Source: Marinobacterium marinum (GTDB taxonomy: Bacteria > Pseudomonadota > Gammaproteobacteria > Pseudomonadales > Balneatricaceae). Taken from it: a stretch of DNA of 64,000 bases. Within the stretch, counting starts at the first letter, position 1. Every line of letters begins with the position of its first letter. The position numbers were made by a program, and so were the translations under genes. The stretch lies in NCBI RefSeq assembly GCF_013868415.1, contig NZ_JACEMT010000053.1, positions 1,173-65,172 on the forward strand, given 5' to 3'. The notes beneath the pieces are model-generated. The model had not been told where the DNA came from. It worked only from the letters and a program-made list of their open reading frames with translations, and did not search any database. Shown here piece by piece: positions 53,464 to 60,009 of this stretch.

Positions 53464-54954
53464 TCAGAGGTTCTTGAGCATCCGCTCGTGTTGCGCCTGT
53501 ACTTCGGCATTGGGTTCGGCACCCTGCAGGGATACCAGAACAATAGCGATGGTTGCCAGCACAATGCCGGGCACGATCTCGTACAGGTCGAACAGTCCGC
53601 CGGACAGCTGCTTCCAGACAACCACTGTCACAGCACCCACAACAATACCGGCCAGCGCGCCGTTGCGAGTCATGCGTTTCCAGTACAGACTTATCAACAG
53701 GGCAGGGCCAAAGGCGGCGCCGAAACCTGCCCAGGCGTAGGACACCAGACCGAGGACGGTGCTGTCCGGGTTAAAGGCCAGGAACATGGCGATCAGAGAC
53801 AGGCCGATAACGGCCAGACGGCCGACCATTACAATTTCCTTCTGTGACGCATCTTTGCGCAGCAGCTGTTTGTAGAAGTCTTCCGCCAGTGCGGATGAGG
53901 ACACCAGCAGCTGGGAGTCGGCGGTACTCATGATAGCTGCCAGAATGGCCGCCAGCAGGATGCCGGCAATCACCGGGTGGAAAATGGCGTTGACCAGCAG
54001 CATGAAGATGGTCTCGCCATCACCCAGTTCACCACCCAGTTGAGTTTCCACGAACAGCATACCGGCGAGGCCAACCAGAACAGCACCGGCCATGGACAGA
54101 CCGCTCCAGCCGACAGCAATGCGGCGTGCGGTCGGGATTTCATCGTTGCTGCGGCAGGCTGCGAAACGCGCCAGGATATGTGGCTGACCGAAGTAGCCCA
54201 GACCCCAGGCTGCCAGGGAGACGATCGCGATCAGGCTTAGTGGGTCGCCATTGGCGTCGTTGAAGATGGTCAGCAGTTCGGGATTTTTCGCTTCGACAGC
54301 GGCCCACATGACACTAAAACCACCATCGGCCTGAATGGCTGCAACCGGTACGATCAGCAGGGCTGCGGCCATCAGCAGACCCTGTACCAGGTCGGTCCAG
54401 GAAACTGCCAGAAAACCGCCAAACAGTGTATAGGACACAATGCAGAGGGTGCCGACGATGAGTGCAGTGGTGTACTCAAGACCGAACACGGTTTCAAACA
54501 GCTTACCGCCGGCCACGAGCCCGGAACTGGTGTAGAACAGGAAGAACAGCAGAATGAAGAAGGCTGAAATCACCTGCAGCAGTCGCGACCGGTCCTGGAA
54601 GCGGTTGGCAAAGTATTCCGGTAGTGTCAAGGCATCACCGGCTTCGATACTGTACGTACGCAGGCGTTTGGCGGTAAACCTCCAGTTGGCCCAGGTACCC
54701 AGTAACAGACCGCCCGCCAGCCAAATGGCTTCCATGCCGGAACCGTAGGCATAGCCTGGCAGCCCCAGCAGCAGCCAGCCGCTCATGTCGGATGCGCCTG
54801 CAGACAGCGCTGCAGGCCAGGGGCCCAGTGAGCGGCCGCCCAAAAAGTAGTCGGAGGAGTTGGCGGTGCGCTGATAGGCGATAACCCCGATGGCCAGCAT
54901 CATAATCAGGTAGACAATAAAGGTGCCGTACACCGCATAGTTGTTTTCAATCAT
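53464..54954 (-). CDS. putP: Sodium/proline symporter
   Basis: A 496-residue SSS-family inner-membrane transporter importing proline with sodium. About 13 helices are visible. Family segments are RTANSSDYFLGGRSLGPWPAALSAGASDMSGWLLLGLPG (sodium site), RLRTYSIEAGDALTLPEYFANRF, LGYFGQPHILARFAA and AILAAIMSTADSQLLVSSSALAEDFYK. Length is close to E. coli PutP (502 aa). It follows putA and the separate PutA C-terminal-domain gene on the same strand, but a 133-nt gap with hairpins suggests its own promoter. Confidence 0.96.
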   Translation of the reverse strand: MIENNYAVYGTFIVYLIMMLAIGVIAYQRTANSSDYFLGGRSLGPWPAALSAGASDMSGWLLLGLPGYAYGSGMEAIWLAGGLLLGTWANWRFTAKRLRTYSIEAGDALTLPEYFANRFQDRSRLLQVISAFFILLFFLFYTSSGLVAGGKLFETVFGLEYTTALIVGTLCIVSYTLFGGFLAVSWTDLVQGLLMAAALLIVPVAAIQADGGFSVMWAAVEAKNPELLTIFNDANGDPLSLIAIVSLAAWGLGYFGQPHILARFAACRSNDEIPTARRIAVGWSGLSMAGAVLVGLAGMLFVETQLGGELGDGETIFMLLVNAIFHPVIAGILLAAILAAIMSTADSQLLVSSSALAEDFYKQLLRKDASQKEIVMVGRLAVIGLSLIAMFLAFNPDSTVLGLVSYAWAGFGAAFGPALLISLYWKRMTRNGALAGIVVGAVTVVVWKQLSGGLFDLYEIVPGIVLATIAIVLVSLQGAEPNAEVQAQHERMLKNL

Positions 54955-55087: not shown

Positions 55088-55780
55088 TTAGACGGTACGG
55101 CTACCCAGCTCAAGCAAAGTAGCGTTGCCGCCGACAGCGGTTGTGTTAATAGTGCGGGTTTTTTCCGTCACCAGACGCAGCAGAAAATCGGGACTGGTCA
55201 GCAGCGGGCAATGCTGCAGGTCGGTTTCTGCCACCAGTTGAACCAGTACACTGTCCTGTTCGGCCAGACGACGGTTCAGTTCGATTTCCTGGGCTGGCGT
55301 GCAGCTGGTCACCACCAGTCGCAAGGCCTCTTCTGCCAACAGTTCTGCGGCGGGTGTTTCGTTGTCTACCACCAGCATGGCACGGGGTACGCCGGCCTGG
55401 TGCAGAGCGCTGGCCAAGGCGGTCGTCCATGCTTCCTGTCCGGGCCACCTCAGTACCACGGTATTACCGCAGGCCAGGGTTGCCAGCAGCTGGCAGGCCA
55501 GCAGAGTTTCACTGCTGCTGTCGGTTCCAGAGACCAGTGCCAGGCCACGTCCGGTCAGATAGAGTTCGTTGGATTCGCCGGTCGGTCCGGGCATTTCCAG
55601 TACCTTCCCCAACGGGCCAGCGTCATTCAGAACCTGGCTGGCCAGGCGCTCGGTCAGCGCGGCTTCGGCGTGGGCAGGCAAATGCTCCAGGGCACTGGCC
55701 AAGTGTTGGCAACGGTCGGCAAAGCCGCGACGGTTCCAGGCTTCCCAGATGGCAATGGCCTGAGTGTCGAAATGCTGCAT
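55088..55780 (-). CDS. Separate PutA C-terminal (ALDH-superfamily, dimerisation) domain protein
   Basis: A 230-residue protein that corresponds to the C-terminal domain of long PutA proteins, not to a complete dehydrogenase. The segment FLLRLVTEKTRTINTTAVGGNATLLELG near its end is the conserved beta-flap-type motif of that domain, and LACQLLATLACGNTVVLRWPG is a degenerate Rossmann-like region. No catalytic Cys/Glu pair of ALDH enzymes is present. It starts 2 nt after the putA stop in another frame, with a strong ribosome-binding site (GGAGG) inside the last putA codons. It presumably assembles with PutA to close the channelling cavity. The assignment is by recognition and context. Confidence 0.82.
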   Translation of the reverse strand: MQHFDTQAIAIWEAWNRRGFADRCQHLASALEHLPAHAEAALTERLASQVLNDAGPLGKVLEMPGPTGESNELYLTGRGLALVSGTDSSSETLLACQLLATLACGNTVVLRWPGQEAWTTALASALHQAGVPRAMLVVDNETPAAELLAEEALRLVVTSCTPAQEIELNRRLAEQDSVLVQLVAETDLQHCPLLTSPDFLLRLVTEKTRTINTTAVGGNATLLELGSRTV

Positions 55781-55782
55781 GT

Positions 55783-58700
55783 TTATCCCTCCGCCTTGTC
55801 AAACGTTGATGTGATCGGCTGCAGCCGGGTGAAGCGCAGTAGATAGTGTGGGCCGCCAGCCTTGGGGCCGGTGCCGGACAGGCCCTGACCGCCAAACGGC
55901 TGTACGCCGACGGTAGCGCCGACCTGGTTGCGGTTGATATAGGTGTTGCCGACACGTGCACGGGATTCGATATGAGCGGCGGTTCCCTCGTTGCGGGTAT
56001 GGATACCCAGCGTCAGTCCGTAGCCACAGCGGTTGATCTGATCGATCAGCGCATCCAGATCACGAGCGTCATAACGCACCAGATGCATGATCGGGCCAAA
56101 CTGCTCGCGTCCCAGGCGCTCGATCGAGTCGATTTCAAACGCAGTGGGCGGCACAAAGGTACCTTGCTCGGATTCGGTGTGCAGCGGGGTCTGTGCCAGC
56201 AGAGTTGCCTGAGCGTTCATATGGTCGATATAGCTGAGCAGCCCCTGTTGTGCGCCGGTGTCGATGACCGGTCCCACATCGGTGCTGTGCAGGCAGGGAT
56301 TGCCGGTCTTCAGTTCGGCCATGGCGCCCTTGAGCAGATCGATGACACGGTCTGCAATATCCTTCTGGACACAGATGACACGCAGGGCCGAGCAGCGCTG
56401 ACCGGCGGACGCGAAGGCGGACTGCACGGCGTCCTGAATGACCTGTTCCGGCAGCGAAGTCGAGTCGACGATCATGGCATTCTGGCCACCGGTTTCGGCG
56501 ATCAGTGGTACGGGAGCGCAGTCCCGTGAGGCCAGGGTGCGGTTGATCAGGCGGGCGGTCTCGGTTGAACCGGTGAACGCGACCCCGGCGATGCGTGGGT
56601 CGGAGGTCAGCGGTGTGCCGACTTCGGCGCCACGGCCGGGCAGCAATTGAATGGCGGTTGCCGGAACGCCGGCTTCGAGCATCAGTTCGACGGCGCGGCA
56701 GGCGATCAGACTGGTCTGCTCGGCAGGCTTGGCAACAACCGTGTTTCCGGCAGCCAGTGCGGCCGTGACCTGACCAAGGAAGATCGCCAGCGGGAAGTTC
56801 CACGGGCTGATGCAGACAAACACGCCACGGCCGTTGCGCATCATGGCGTGGCTGTTGCCGTCGGCCAAGGTGCGTTTGAGCGGTGCGCTGAACAGTTCAT
56901 TGGCGCCCAAGGCGTAATAGCGACAGAAATCGACCGCCTCGCGCACTTCGTCGATACTGTCCTGAATGGTTTTACCTGCCTCCTGGTGACACAGGGCGAC
57001 CAGTTCGGCCAAGTGCTCTTCCAGCAGATCACCAAGGCGCATCAGGGCCTGGGTGCGGATGCCCACGGGCGTAGCCTGCCAGTCGGCAAAGCCGTCATGC
57101 GCAACCTGAATGGCCTGTGCGACCAGTTCGGCGTCGGCAAAGTGAACCTGACCGGTGTGATGGCGGTGATCGTAAGGTGCCTTGACTGTCTGAATGTTGC
57201 CGCTATCAATGCGTGTGCCATTGATGATGGGGCCACCCAGCCACTGATGCTCCAGCCAAGCGCTAACCTTGGCACTGAACGGCGCCCATTCGCAGTGAAT
57301 GTCGATGTTGGGGCCGCGGGAGTTGGGACGCTGTTGGCCGTAGATGTCGCGTGGCAACGGAATGTGCGGGTTGTGTAGCGGGTTGCGCTTGTTCAGTGTC
57401 AGCCAGGGGTGCTCGGTCAGGTCGCTGATCGGGCAGCGGGCATCCACCAGGCGGTGGACGAAGGAGCTGTTGGCACCGTTCTCCAGCAGGCGGCGCACCA
57501 GATAGGGCAGCAAATCCTTGTGGTTGCCCACGGGGGCGTAGATGCGCACGGCAACACCGGCCTGTTCCAGGACGCGGTCATAGAGTGCATCGCCCATGCC
57601 GTGCAGGCGCTGGAACTCGAACTGGTCGTGCTGTGCTTCGGTCATGATGGCAGCGACCGTGTGTGCGTTGTGGCTGGCAAACTGTGGCCAGATCAGTCCC
57701 TTGATATGGGAACTTAGCAAGAAGCGGGCGCAGGCGAGGTAGGCAACATCAGTGGATTCTTTACGGGTGTAGACCGGATAGCCGTCCAGCCCCTTTTGCT
57801 GACACAGCTTGATCTCTGAATCCCAGTAGGCGCCTTTGACCAAACGGATCGGGATCAGGTCGCCCTGCCGTTTGGCCAATGCCGCCAGCCAGATCAGCAC
57901 CGGTAGGGCACGCTTGGAATAGGCCTGTACCACCAGACCAAAACCGCCCCAGCCCTGGCAATCCGGGTGCTGGTACAGTTTCTGGAACAGTTGCAGAGAC
58001 AGTTCCAGTCGATCGGCTTCCTCGGCATCAACGGTGATGGCGACATCCTGTGCACGGGCCTGACGAATCAGCTTGAGCACCGTGGTGAACAACTGCTCCA
58101 TGACCTGCTCTTCCTGGCCCGGCTCGTAGCGCGGATGTAGGGCCGACAGCTTGATGGAAACGCTGGGTTTGGGACCCTTCGCTTTTTGGTCCTGGTAGCT
58201 GCCGACGAAATCGATGGCGCGGCTGTAATCGTTCAGGTATTTGGCGGCATCGGCGCGGGTCAGTGCGGCCTCACCGAGCATGTCGAAGGAATAGGTGTAG
58301 CCTTTCTGGCGCTCTTCACTGCCGCGCTTCATGGCTTCCTTGATGTCGCGGCCGAGGACGAACTGGTGGCCCATGATTTTCATCGCCTGCTGCATCACCT
58401 TGCGGATCAGCGGTTCGCCCATGCGGTTGACCAGGCGGTTGATGACGCCGGACGGGGTGCCATCCTCGCGTTCATCCATGGTGACAACCTTGCCGGTCAG
58501 CAACAGGCCCCAGGTGGAGGCGTTGACCAGCAGGGAGTCGGAATTTTTCAGATGACTCTTCCAGTCGGCGACGCTGAGCTTGTCGCGAATCAGCGCATCG
58601 GCGGTGTCGGCATCGGGGATGCGCATCAGCGCTTCGGCCAGACACATCAACAGAATACCCTCACGGGTATCCAGGCTGTATTCCAGCAGCAGGGCGTCGA

Positions 58701-58920
58701 TCATGTGAATGGCGCCGTCGTCGGCCCGAACCTGTTCGATCAGGCTGGTGGCACGGGATTCCGCCTGACGAATCTGATCGCCGGTCGGTTCGGCCAGTGC
58801 CATCAGCTCCCTGAGCCAGCGGCTCTCGTCAATGGCGTAAAGCGGGGAGATCTGCTCCCAGAGCGCCGCCAGCGGCTGCTCGATCAATCCCGGATGCAGT
58901 GCATCGATCGCTTTGAACAT
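55783..58920 (-). CDS. putA: Bifunctional proline dehydrogenase/P5C dehydrogenase, without DNA-binding domain
   Basis: A 1045-residue FAD/NAD enzyme oxidising proline to glutamate. The PRODH barrel occupies about 60-500 (SVSIKLSALHPRYE, VTVDAEEADRLELS-type sequence, RLVKGAYWDSEIK, ASHNAHTVAAI, YAPVGNHKDLLPYLVRRLLENGANSSFVHR). The P5C dehydrogenase domain runs from about 540 to the end, with E809 (IAETGGQNAMIVDS) and catalytic C843 (GQRCSALRV). The ribbon-helix-helix found at the start of E. coli PutA is missing, so it cannot be an autorepressor of that kind. The protein ends right after GGPHYLLRFTRLQP, where long PutAs continue into a C-terminal domain that here is a separate gene. Confidence 0.96.
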   Translation of the reverse strand: MFKAIDALHPGLIEQPLAALWEQISPLYAIDESRWLRELMALAEPTGDQIRQAESRATSLIEQVRADDGAIHMIDALLLEYSLDTREGILLMCLAEALMRIPDADTADALIRDKLSVADWKSHLKNSDSLLVNASTWGLLLTGKVVTMDEREDGTPSGVINRLVNRMGEPLIRKVMQQAMKIMGHQFVLGRDIKEAMKRGSEERQKGYTYSFDMLGEAALTRADAAKYLNDYSRAIDFVGSYQDQKAKGPKPSVSIKLSALHPRYEPGQEEQVMEQLFTTVLKLIRQARAQDVAITVDAEEADRLELSLQLFQKLYQHPDCQGWGGFGLVVQAYSKRALPVLIWLAALAKRQGDLIPIRLVKGAYWDSEIKLCQQKGLDGYPVYTRKESTDVAYLACARFLLSSHIKGLIWPQFASHNAHTVAAIMTEAQHDQFEFQRLHGMGDALYDRVLEQAGVAVRIYAPVGNHKDLLPYLVRRLLENGANSSFVHRLVDARCPISDLTEHPWLTLNKRNPLHNPHIPLPRDIYGQQRPNSRGPNIDIHCEWAPFSAKVSAWLEHQWLGGPIINGTRIDSGNIQTVKAPYDHRHHTGQVHFADAELVAQAIQVAHDGFADWQATPVGIRTQALMRLGDLLEEHLAELVALCHQEAGKTIQDSIDEVREAVDFCRYYALGANELFSAPLKRTLADGNSHAMMRNGRGVFVCISPWNFPLAIFLGQVTAALAAGNTVVAKPAEQTSLIACRAVELMLEAGVPATAIQLLPGRGAEVGTPLTSDPRIAGVAFTGSTETARLINRTLASRDCAPVPLIAETGGQNAMIVDSTSLPEQVIQDAVQSAFASAGQRCSALRVICVQKDIADRVIDLLKGAMAELKTGNPCLHSTDVGPVIDTGAQQGLLSYIDHMNAQATLLAQTPLHTESEQGTFVPPTAFEIDSIERLGREQFGPIMHLVRYDARDLDALIDQINRCGYGLTLGIHTRNEGTAAHIESRARVGNTYINRNQVGATVGVQPFGGQGLSGTGPKAGGPHYLLRFTRLQPITSTFDKAEG

Positions 58921-59063: not shown

Positions 59064-59855
59064 CTATGGTTGTTTTGCGCAATCCTCTGACGGGTGTTGG
59101 CTCCATTGGCGGCGGAACTGGGCCGGCGACAGGTCGAAACGCTGGCTGAAGGCCCGGGTCAGTGCGCTCTGGTTGCAAAAACCGAAGCGGCTGGCCAGTT
59201 GAGCGATGGAATCGGGGGCGTGGATCAGGGCATCACGTACGGCTTGCAGACGGCGCTCATGGACATACTGACTCGGTGTCAGGCCGGACTGCTCGCGAAA
59301 GCGGGCAAAAAACTGACTGCTGCTGAGACAGAACAATCCCGCCAATTCATCGACGGGCATGCGTCGGTCCATATGGGTATCAATATAGTCATCCAACAGC
59401 TCCATGTTCAGCTTACCCCGCACTCGTGCCGGCAGACTGTGGTCCAGTTGGCGTTGCAGGGCACAGATCAGGGTATTGCAGCAGGCTTCCTGCAGCAGCC
59501 GGTCTTCGGGGTTGTGCTGGATTTCACGGCTGAGCGAACGCAACAGCAGCTGCAGTTCAGGGGGGCAGTGGAAATAGGAGGGGTGTTGAAACAATCGGTT
59601 GATCCGCTCCTGCTGCAGACGGTCGGTGCTTTCGGTGGGCAGATCAAGAACCAGAATGCGGTTGTCGCCCAGCCCGCTGAAAACATGGTCAGTGGCGCAG
59701 GGAACAAGACAACCGTGACCGATACGGACTTCGCGGCTGCGCCCGACCAGCTCGAACGCGGTCTCTCCTTCCAACCCGAATACCAGTTGATGGTGCTGGT
59801 GGTCGTGTTGGTCGGCGGACGGGGGCAGAGTCAGAACTTTGGTGCTGTGGGTCAT
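59064..59855 (-). CDS. AraC-family regulator, probably of proline utilisation (PruR-like)
   Basis: A 263-residue regulator with an N-terminal cupin-like sensing domain (DQHDHQHHQLVFGLEGETAFELVGRSREVRIGHGCLVPC) and a C-terminal double HTH (about 165-255, LLDDYIDTHMDRRMPVDELAGLFCLSSSQFFARFREQSGLTPSQYVHERRL ... SIAQLASRFGFCNQSALTRAFSQRF). The ATG at 59855 gives a family-like N terminus; an in-frame start at 59909 adds an odd basic leader. It sits 143 nt upstream of putA on the same strand. Because PutA lacks its own DNA-binding domain, this is the best candidate regulator, as PruR is in Pseudomonas. Confidence 0.88.
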   Translation of the reverse strand: MTHSTKVLTLPPSADQHDHQHHQLVFGLEGETAFELVGRSREVRIGHGCLVPCATDHVFSGLGDNRILVLDLPTESTDRLQQERINRLFQHPSYFHCPPELQLLLRSLSREIQHNPEDRLLQEACCNTLICALQRQLDHSLPARVRGKLNMELLDDYIDTHMDRRMPVDELAGLFCLSSSQFFARFREQSGLTPSQYVHERRLQAVRDALIHAPDSIAQLASRFGFCNQSALTRAFSQRFDLSPAQFRRQWSQHPSEDCAKQP

Positions 59856-60009
59856 AGGGCGTCGCCACCGTTTTAGCGTTATTACGGTTAACCTTAGCCT
59901 ATTAATCATACAGTGTAACGGGTGTGATGTGATCAGGCGGAGCGCATTTGACTGCCATTACGGGTACAATAGCGGCAAATGAACTCTGACTTACAGGATA
60001 GATGGCGAG

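What the first reader, a model, noticed from the sequence alone, without database searches (positions are those of the whole stretch)
55088..58920. PutA split into a 1045-aa enzyme plus a separate C-terminal-domain gene
Seen: putA ends right after the ALDH domain (GGPHYLLRF...). A 230-codon gene starts 2 nt later in another frame with its own GGAGG. Its product carries the conserved motif of the PutA C-terminal domain (RTINTTAVGGNATLLELG). Known: in long PutAs this domain is covalently attached and helps seal the substrate-channelling tunnel. 1045+230 aa equals the length of long DNA-binding-free PutAs. Inference: a gene fission at a domain border that kept both parts functional as a two-subunit PutA.
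Basis: partly seen in the sequence, partly recalled or inferred. Interest (0 to 1): 0.72.

Follow-up and report, generated by a model that had tools for sequence, protein, structure and literature searches.

The report
PutA proline enzyme with separate adapter
In this marine bacterium and many relatives of Vibrio, the proline-degrading enzyme PutA comes with a second small gene that carries a worn-down, probably non-catalytic copy of one of its domains, which may act as a detachable clamp sealing the enzyme's internal tunnel.

Summary
The 1045-aa PutA gene (58920-55783, minus strand) is followed after 2 nt by a 230-codon gene (55780-55088), between an AraC-type regulator and putP. It is no sequencing error: the small gene lies directly behind the large one in 46 of 46 fetched loci where both could be read, and 108 of 121 Vibrionaceae-family genomes carry it as its own frame.

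The small protein has Rossmann fold, flap loop and C-terminal motif of the PutA C-terminal domain (CTD) but no catalytic domain or cysteine, so the 'PutC' P5C dehydrogenase label printed for Vibrio campbellii is probably wrong. The large protein keeps both catalytic domains but lost flap loop and C-terminal motif.

Fission of a long type B PutA is not supported: split large subunits form one clade inside type A, and trees joining them with type B are rejected. Seven type A sister loci have putA next to putP with no small gene. Likeliest origin: in-place duplication of the type A aldehyde dehydrogenase domain and reciprocal loss; domain trees cannot exclude an acquired CTD.

Most likely function: a non-catalytic subunit sealing the tunnel in trans. 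Binding is inferred, not shown.

The parts
55783..58920 (-). putA, large subunit: 1045 aa, proline dehydrogenase plus L-glutamate-gamma-semialdehyde (P5C) dehydrogenase, without the PutA C-terminal motif
   Evidence: no second PutA of this length in the genome assembly, only a compact 785-aa relative; residues aligned with C843, E809, N708 and K731 present in 28 of 28 split large subunits examined
55088..55780 (-). small adapter gene: 230 aa, Rossmann fold + flap + PutA C-terminal motif, no catalytic domain
55544..55594 (-). flap loop MPGPTGESNELYLTGRG in the small protein (residues 63-79); the same 17 letters stand in the ALDH domain of type A relative L156
55103..55177 (-). conserved C-terminal motif region (residues 202-226) in the small protein
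56824..56874 (-). the place of the flap loop in the large subunit (residues 683-699, RTLADGNSHAMMRNGRG): same length as in type A L156, motif lost
   Evidence: hairpin strands still predicted at residues 681-684 and 690-697
56392..56394 (-). codon of the catalytic cysteine C843 of the large subunit; no counterpart in the small protein
55787..55792 (-). GGAGGG, likely ribosome-binding site of the small gene, inside the last codons of putA: translational coupling likely
   Evidence: sequence; function inferred
53464..54954 (-). putP, sodium/proline symporter, downstream in the same direction
   Evidence: TIGR02121, 712.8 bits, cut-off 515.5
59064..59909 (-). AraC-family regulator upstream, possibly PruR-like
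   Evidence: role of PruR seen in passages of PMC5879082; the likeness to PruR was not tested

Best explanation
The pair is a two-chain proline utilization A. The large chain does both oxidations, proline to P5C and glutamate semialdehyde to glutamate. The small chain is a non-catalytic adapter: an aldehyde dehydrogenase domain reduced to Rossmann core, dimerisation flap and C-terminal motif. In type A PutAs two identical chains swap these parts so that each covers the other's channelling tunnel; in type B PutAs a fused C-terminal domain does this within the chain. Here the adapter is a separate polypeptide made from the next gene, and it most likely docks on the large chain's aldehyde dehydrogenase module in place of a second PutA chain, sealing the tunnel and supporting that active site. 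It probably arose once, in an ancestor of the Vibrio/Marinobacterium-type genes, when the C-terminal half of a type A putA was duplicated between putA and putP; the front copy then lost flap motif and C-terminal motif, the rear copy lost catalysis. Shown: gene pair, conservation, domain content, lost catalytic residues, phylogenetic place of the large chain, synteny. Inferred: binding, sealing, and the duplication itself.
For: Small directly 3' of large in 46 of 46 readable loci; both the AraC-type gene and putP beside the pair in 30 of 50 loci, several of the rest being too short to show them; annotated example L180. Distribution: separate frame in 28 of 293 genomes of the order, 108 of 121 of the Vibrionaceae family, 16 of 398 of the phylum. 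Reciprocal pattern: flap-loop pattern in the ALDH domain of 28 of 33 type A (the other 5 have variants), 0 of 22 type B, 0 of 28 split large chains; C-terminal motif absent from 27 of 28 split large chains. 27 residues are invariant in 25 of 25 smalls, 24 of them in loop and tail, while the cysteine motif and PWNFP are absent in 50 of 50 small frames. Core trees: split = one clade, SH-aLRT 99-100, inside type A; joins with type B rejected. Some split large chains end in what looks like the start of the type A motif, e.g. RFATEQDL, RFAKEQLV. Loop + tail match one of the four nearest type A domains best in 24 of 24 smalls (two of them tied with a farther type A to two decimals); spliced type A domains outscore fused CTDs in 55 of 56. 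Seven type A sisters have putA-putP gaps of 83-380 nt and no small gene. dN/dS of small 0.05-0.35 in the 13 of 14 pairs that could be computed. Confident fold model (pLDDT 88.7), best match type A BjPutA. Transcripts of putB, putC and putP fall together in a V. campbellii mutant (PMC3858670, passages).
Against: No direct evidence of binding. Domain trees do not settle the origin of the small gene: AU tests accept small + nearest type A (p 0.5), small + all fused CTDs (p 0.53, likelihood 1.3 higher) and small + the fused CTDs of family f280 (p 0.76, likelihood 20 higher); an earlier domain tree kept all worn-down domains apart from all ALDH domains, a long-branch pattern. By unspliced BLAST 42 of 56 smalls scored best with the f280 fused CTD and 9 with the nearest type A, an unequal comparison because type A alignments break at the catalytic domain. 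In the fold search ordinary ALDHs rank between BjPutA and the long type B-like PutA entries, so the fold alone does not point to PutA's CTD. The middle of the small protein is poorly conserved. 13 of 121 Vibrionaceae-family genomes have no small gene at the threshold used; whether they have PutA was not checked. The model of the large chain keeps a flap hairpin and C-terminal strand, so a homodimer is still conceivable. In L168-L175 no putP was found in the fetched stretch.
Confidence: 0.65

Rival explanations
1. Gene fission of a long type B PutA at the border between ALDH domain and CTD, both parts staying functional, or fission of an unseen fused form that had arisen within the type A clade.
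For: Domain content equals that of type B, split at the domain border; small aligns along its length with fused CTDs.
Against: Large chain nests in type A, joins with type B rejected. Among 293 + 121 genomes every match of the small-protein profile at E 1e-42 or better is a separate frame. Type A sisters without small gene.
Confidence: 0.12
2. The CTD was acquired as a gene from another, fused PutA and replaced the type A chain's own flap and C-terminal motif.
For: Domain AU tests do not exclude it, and the constraint with the f280 CTDs has the higher likelihood; unspliced BLAST; genomes G011 and G024 hold both a split system and a fused type B PutA.
Against: Loop and tail resemble the nearest type A more than fused CTDs; tail similarity follows core similarity (rho 0.82 for the window, -0.02 to 0.62 for 22 fused CTDs). 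Type B CTDs of the same genomes end in a different motif (ERHLCVDTTAAGGNASLIA).
Confidence: 0.18
3. The small protein is a P5C dehydrogenase in its own right (PutC of a putBCP operon), as printed for V. campbellii.
For: Name and locus order in PMC3858670; ALDH-family relation.
Against: Catalytic cysteine motif and PWNFP absent in 50 of 50 small frames; length and model leave no catalytic domain; the large chain has a complete P5C dehydrogenase domain.
Confidence: 0.03
4. The small protein mainly tethers PutA to the membrane or regulates it, rather than sealing the tunnel.
For: The CTD has been implicated in proline-dependent lipid association of RcPutA and in functional switching (PMC5293562, passages).
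Against: The conserved loop and tail are the parts that, by position, type A uses for dimer contact (recalled; PMC5786444 passages, describe the swap in general). The two roles do not exclude each other.
Confidence: 0.2
5. Sequencing error or decaying remnant of a once continuous gene.
For: Two frames 2 nt apart in this assembly.
Against: Same arrangement in many genera with different gaps and purifying selection.
Confidence: 0.01

Closest known systems
Type B PutA with fused C-terminal ALDH-superfamily domain (SmPutA, RcPutA)
   Same: Same set of domains; C-terminal motif and, by pattern in 18 of 22 rows, flap loop sit in the CTD; the catalytic ALDH domain has lost its flap loop
   Different: Two chains; large chain belongs phylogenetically to type A; large chain still predicted to have a flap hairpin
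Type A PutA (BjPutA; gammaproteobacterial relatives L156, L176, L177)
   Same: Closest relatives of the large chain (61-67% identity); same AraC/putP neighbourhood in several; nearly the same loop and tail letters as the small protein
   Different: One chain that carries its own loop and C-terminal motif; no small gene next to it in the loci seen
putBCP operon of Vibrio campbellii (PMC3858670)
   Same: Same gene order (large, small, putP); in print with transcripts that fall together
   Different: There the small gene is called P5C dehydrogenase PutC and the large one proline dehydrogenase PutB; the sequences say bifunctional enzyme and non-catalytic adapter. That these tags are the homologous genes is inferred from L181, another V. 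campbellii strain
Separate PRODH and P5CDH enzymes
   Same: Two genes for proline catabolism
   Different: There each gene has one activity; here both catalytic domains are in the large chain

Membership tests
PutA (bifunctional proline dehydrogenase / P5C dehydrogenase) | PRODH barrel and ALDH domain in one chain | tested here: met
   large chain; NF008869 1596 bits, cut-off 747
PutA (bifunctional proline dehydrogenase / P5C dehydrogenase) | catalytic residues of both sites | tested here: met
   ALDH C843, E809, N708, K731 and one PRODH arginine (R476) conserved in 28 of 28; other PRODH residues were not singled out; the roles of these residues are recalled
Type A PutA | flap loop in the ALDH domain and C-terminal motif in the same chain | tested here: not met
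   loop absent in 28 of 28, motif absent in 27 of 28 split large chains; L146 ends in GGNA
Type A PutA | phylogenetic place of the catalytic core | tested here: met
   row types were assigned by me from length and tail
Type B PutA | CTD covalently attached | tested here: not met
   separate frame in 46 of 46 loci
Type B PutA | core groups with type B | tested here: not met
   AU tests
Type C PutA | N-terminal ribbon-helix-helix DNA-binding domain | tested here: not met
   NCBIfam trifunctional model matched only from position 89; no such domain in Pfam
P5C dehydrogenase (for the small protein) | catalytic cysteine and NAD-binding motif | tested here: not met
   0 of 50 small frames
PutA CTD / ALDH-superfamily adapter domain (for the small protein) | Rossmann core, flap and C-terminal motif without catalytic domain | tested here: met
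PutA CTD / ALDH-superfamily adapter domain (for the small protein) | contact with the ALDH module, tunnel sealing | not testable with these tools
   two-chain modelling not available; single-chain limit 1200 aa

The most novel reading that the evidence does not exclude
PutA's tunnel-sealing adapter has been invented several times by duplication of the enzyme's own aldehyde dehydrogenase domain, and in the Vibrio/Marinobacterium lineage it stayed a separate subunit: a living example of the step from self-sealing homodimer to heteromer, parallel to the fused type B domain. The presence of a CTD changes 7 times on the core tree, counted without direction, of which well-supported branches force 3, and some fused CTDs (L178, L183) are still about 42% identical to type A ALDH domains.
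Probability: 0.48. Interest if true: 0.75.

Novelty: new variant of a known kind. Interest (0 to 1): 0.6.

Why it matters
As far as the papers seen here go, the CTD of long PutAs has been studied in fused proteins; a natural two-chain version, found in most sampled genomes of one family, lets one take the adapter away and add it back without truncating the enzyme, which makes its role in substrate channelling, aldehyde dehydrogenase activity and membrane switching directly testable. It also corrects a gene label: in Vibrionaceae the gene between putA and putP has been named aldehyde dehydrogenase (L180) or PutC (PMC3858670), but is very unlikely to be an enzyme.

Tried and rejected
Sequencing error, programmed frameshift and pseudogene were rejected: gaps between the genes fall in all frames and the two are separate frames in all 46 readable loci, and dN/dS is low.

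Domain trees were meant to decide between duplication and acquisition and did not: the worn-down domains have long branches and AU tests accept all three placements tried. Unspliced BLAST pointed to fused CTDs of family f280 in 42 of 56; after splicing out the catalytic domain of type A the nearest type A domains won in 53 of 56 (2 other type A, 1 f280). Both results are reported. The cores of the f280 proteins lie in another clade, so they are not the fused form of this pair.

The draw from the class found only the window itself in 369 genomes, probably because it takes few genomes per family; one search shows that the same class holds many more. The promoter/terminator scan found no more than chance. 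Structure model of the large chain: moderate (pLDDT 78.3), not used for contacts. An automatic sorting of rows into types by pattern was poor; the types used in the trees were set by hand.

Literature: ten searches of the held library, of which I saw the listings. None showed a description of a separate CTD subunit of PutA; only PMC3858670, in passages, showed the gene, as PutC. Passages were also seen of PMC5293562, PMC5786444, PMC12398946, PMC12093977, PMC7876524 and PMC5879082; no paper was read whole. The key structure papers on the type B domain (PMC5104932, PMC4159212), the review PMC5650515, the V. vulnificus putAP paper (PMC161561) and one Biochemistry paper asked for by DOI are not held, so prior notice there cannot be excluded; the adapter role of the type B domain is partly recalled.
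Full report
Observation. On the minus strand the window reads AraC-type regulator (59909-59064), a 1045-codon gene (58920-55783), a 230-codon gene (55780-55088) and putP (54954-53464). The two middle genes are 2 nt apart, in different frames, with GGAGGG before the second ATG. The large protein has PutA's helical domain, proline dehydrogenase and aldehyde dehydrogenase (ALDH) domains. The assembly (55 contigs, 99% complete) holds no second PutA of this length, only a compact 785-aa relative. The small protein falls below Pfam's cut-off, but PutA models match it: the ALDH part of the bifunctional model and the last 184 positions of the trifunctional one. In the PDB, type A PutA of Bradyrhizobium matches best, in two stretches, residues 630-763 and, weakly (0.07 on its own), 966-997, i.e. 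Rossmann core and C-terminus without the catalytic part between; long PutA entries (5kf6) match at 1066-1130, inside the CTD (E 1e-7).

It is not an error. Relatives with the same pair were found among 38 relatives (13 separate small frames, 7 of the 8 genus members, the window's own genome counted in both) and in named genomes: Marinobacterium, Grimontia, Enterovibrio, Veronia, Vibrio, Psychromonas, an Aliivibrio MAG and a Beggiatoa MAG. In 46 of 46 loci where both genes could be read the small gene lies directly 3' on the same strand; 45 gaps range from -125 to +73 nt, and in L139 the large frame is itself broken. Some of the 46 are repeats (L101 is the window; L147 and L179 are one genome). 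An AraC-type gene and putP both flank the pair in 30 of the 50 loci printed; in L168-L175 no putP was found. Surveys with a profile of 20 smalls: 28 of 293 genomes of the order (8 of the window's family, 12 of family f208, 7 of f15, 1 of f198); 108 of 121 of the family of G748, taken as Vibrionaceae because the genome of Grimontia locus L031 reappears there with the same match coordinates; 19 of 398 of the phylum, 16 as separate frames and 3 inside long frames; 1 of 369 in a thin draw from the class; 1 of 142 in the class of G987, the long-frame one itself. In plasmid-type records 11 matched, all Vibrio, Salinivibrio or Photobacterium; Salinivibrio is annotated AraC - putA - aldehyde dehydrogenase family protein - putP.

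What the small protein is. Twenty-five smalls share 27 invariant residues, 24 of them in the loop around GPTGE.N.L....RG and the tail R..TE.....N.TAVGGNA.LL.LG. The cysteine motif and PWNFP are absent in 50 of 50 small frames. A model from 25 sequences is confident (pLDDT 88.7, pTM 0.85; residues 1-3 and 217-230 are not). Its best PDB matches are type A BjPutA (from E 1e-11); ordinary ALDHs (from 5e-10) and long PutA entries (from 5e-9) follow, and the output does not say which part of those was matched. dN/dS is 0.05-0.35 in 13 of 14 pairs, one not computable, against 0.02-0.14 for the large gene.

What the large protein is. Types of the rows were set by me from length and tail. A tree of 75 and one of 83 PutA cores put the split large chains (24, then 28) in one clade (SH-aLRT 100 and 99) inside gammaproteobacterial type A PutAs; a third tree with 32 split rows agrees, after I left out 15 long or distant rows. 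Holding split and all 22 type B rows together costs 583 log units (p-AU 0.0003); with the gamma type B clade 223 (p-AU 4e-37). These groups were named after the first tree. The nearest type A relatives are 61-67% identical to the window's large chain, type B proteins of the same genus and family about 50%.

Reciprocal loss. Type A carries the loop in its ALDH domain (pattern in 28 of 33; the other 5 have variants) and the C-terminal motif at its end (32 of 33 by pattern). Type B has no loop there (0 of 22) but has the motif at its end (22 of 22) and the loop pattern in its CTD in 18 of 22. Split large chains have no loop (0 of 28) and no motif (27 of 28; L146 ends in DTPAGGNA, possibly a remnant). 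Several end in what looks like the first residues of the lost motif: RFATEQDL, RFAKEQLV, RFAHEVTI; others, the window's included, show no such trace. The small proteins have both loop and motif. For loop plus tail, 24 of 24 smalls match one of the four nearest type A domains best (60-71%; best farther type A 55-67%, with ties for L043 and L144; best type B CTD 43-54%), and the tail's similarity to type A rows follows that of the partner core (rho 0.82, 0.80, 0.54, 0.77 in four split systems, -0.02 to 0.62 in 22 fused ones; rows are related, so p-values are not independent). Of ten nearest type A loci, L154, L177 and L191 read araC-putA-putP and L156, L176, L190 and L194 putA-putP, with 83-380 nt between and no small gene; in L157, L158 and L193 no putP was found in the fetched stretch. 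All this suits a duplication in place. Against certainty: domain trees accept the small with the nearest type A (p 0.5), with all fused CTDs (p 0.53) and with the f280 fused CTDs (p 0.76, likelihood 20 higher), and unspliced BLAST favoured f280 CTDs in 42 of 56, against 53 of 56 for the nearest type A after splicing.

Mechanism. In BjPutA the oligomerisation domain of one chain engages the other chain's dehydrogenase module and covers the tunnel (PMC5786444, passages). In RcPutA the CTD supports ALDH activity and channelling (PMC5293562, passages). That the SmPutA domain does so within one chain without binding NAD is recalled from a paper not held. The split pair has these sealing parts, as I map them, on a second chain. 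I therefore think that the small protein is an adapter subunit acting in trans. Binding, stoichiometry and sealing are inferred; the large chain's model still has a flap hairpin, so a homodimer is not excluded.

Prior notice. In Vibrio campbellii the operon is printed as putBCP, proline dehydrogenase, P5C dehydrogenase and permease, falling together in a mutant (PMC3858670, passages). The order agrees with L181 from another strain of that species. The sequences say that 'PutB' is the whole bifunctional enzyme and 'PutC' is not a dehydrogenase. No listing in ten searches described a separate CTD subunit; several key papers are not held.

Verdict. A real, old and widespread variant of PutA, related to type A by its core and to type B by its division of labour, and not a fission of a type B protein as far as tested.

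Noticed in passing
L163:2012-4369 (G000:C28, own genome): A 785-aa protein with a weak Pro_dh and a full ALDH domain but no PutA helical domain (30% identity to the large chain); frames of 799 aa also match in G001, G006 and G007.
   Followed up: partly
L139:4001-7119: In Vibrio sp. THAF191c the large gene is in two overlapping frames (724 and 335 aa): a frameshift or a sequencing error; the small gene is intact.
   Followed up: no
L197, L198, L199 (family f280, another class): Fused PutAs of 1267-1284 aa whose CTD is closer to the small protein than other fused CTDs are; their cores lie in a different clade.
   Followed up: partly
L178, L183, L188 with L192: Fused CTDs that look young: L178 and L183 are about 42% identical to type A ALDH domains, and the tail of L188 is most like that of type A L192, also its nearest core: hints of repeated origin of the CTD.
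   Followed up: partly
L149 with L162; L161 with L144; genome G1026 of L088: Some genomes hold both the split system and a fused type B PutA.
   Followed up: no
L146:2524-5691: The split large chain ends in DTPAGGNA, possibly a remnant of the lost C-terminal motif.
   Followed up: no
L143 (NZ_CP141089.1): A 4.9-Mb E. coli record filed as a plasmid in the plasmid collection carries a putA/putP region; its size suggests a chromosome.
   Followed up: no
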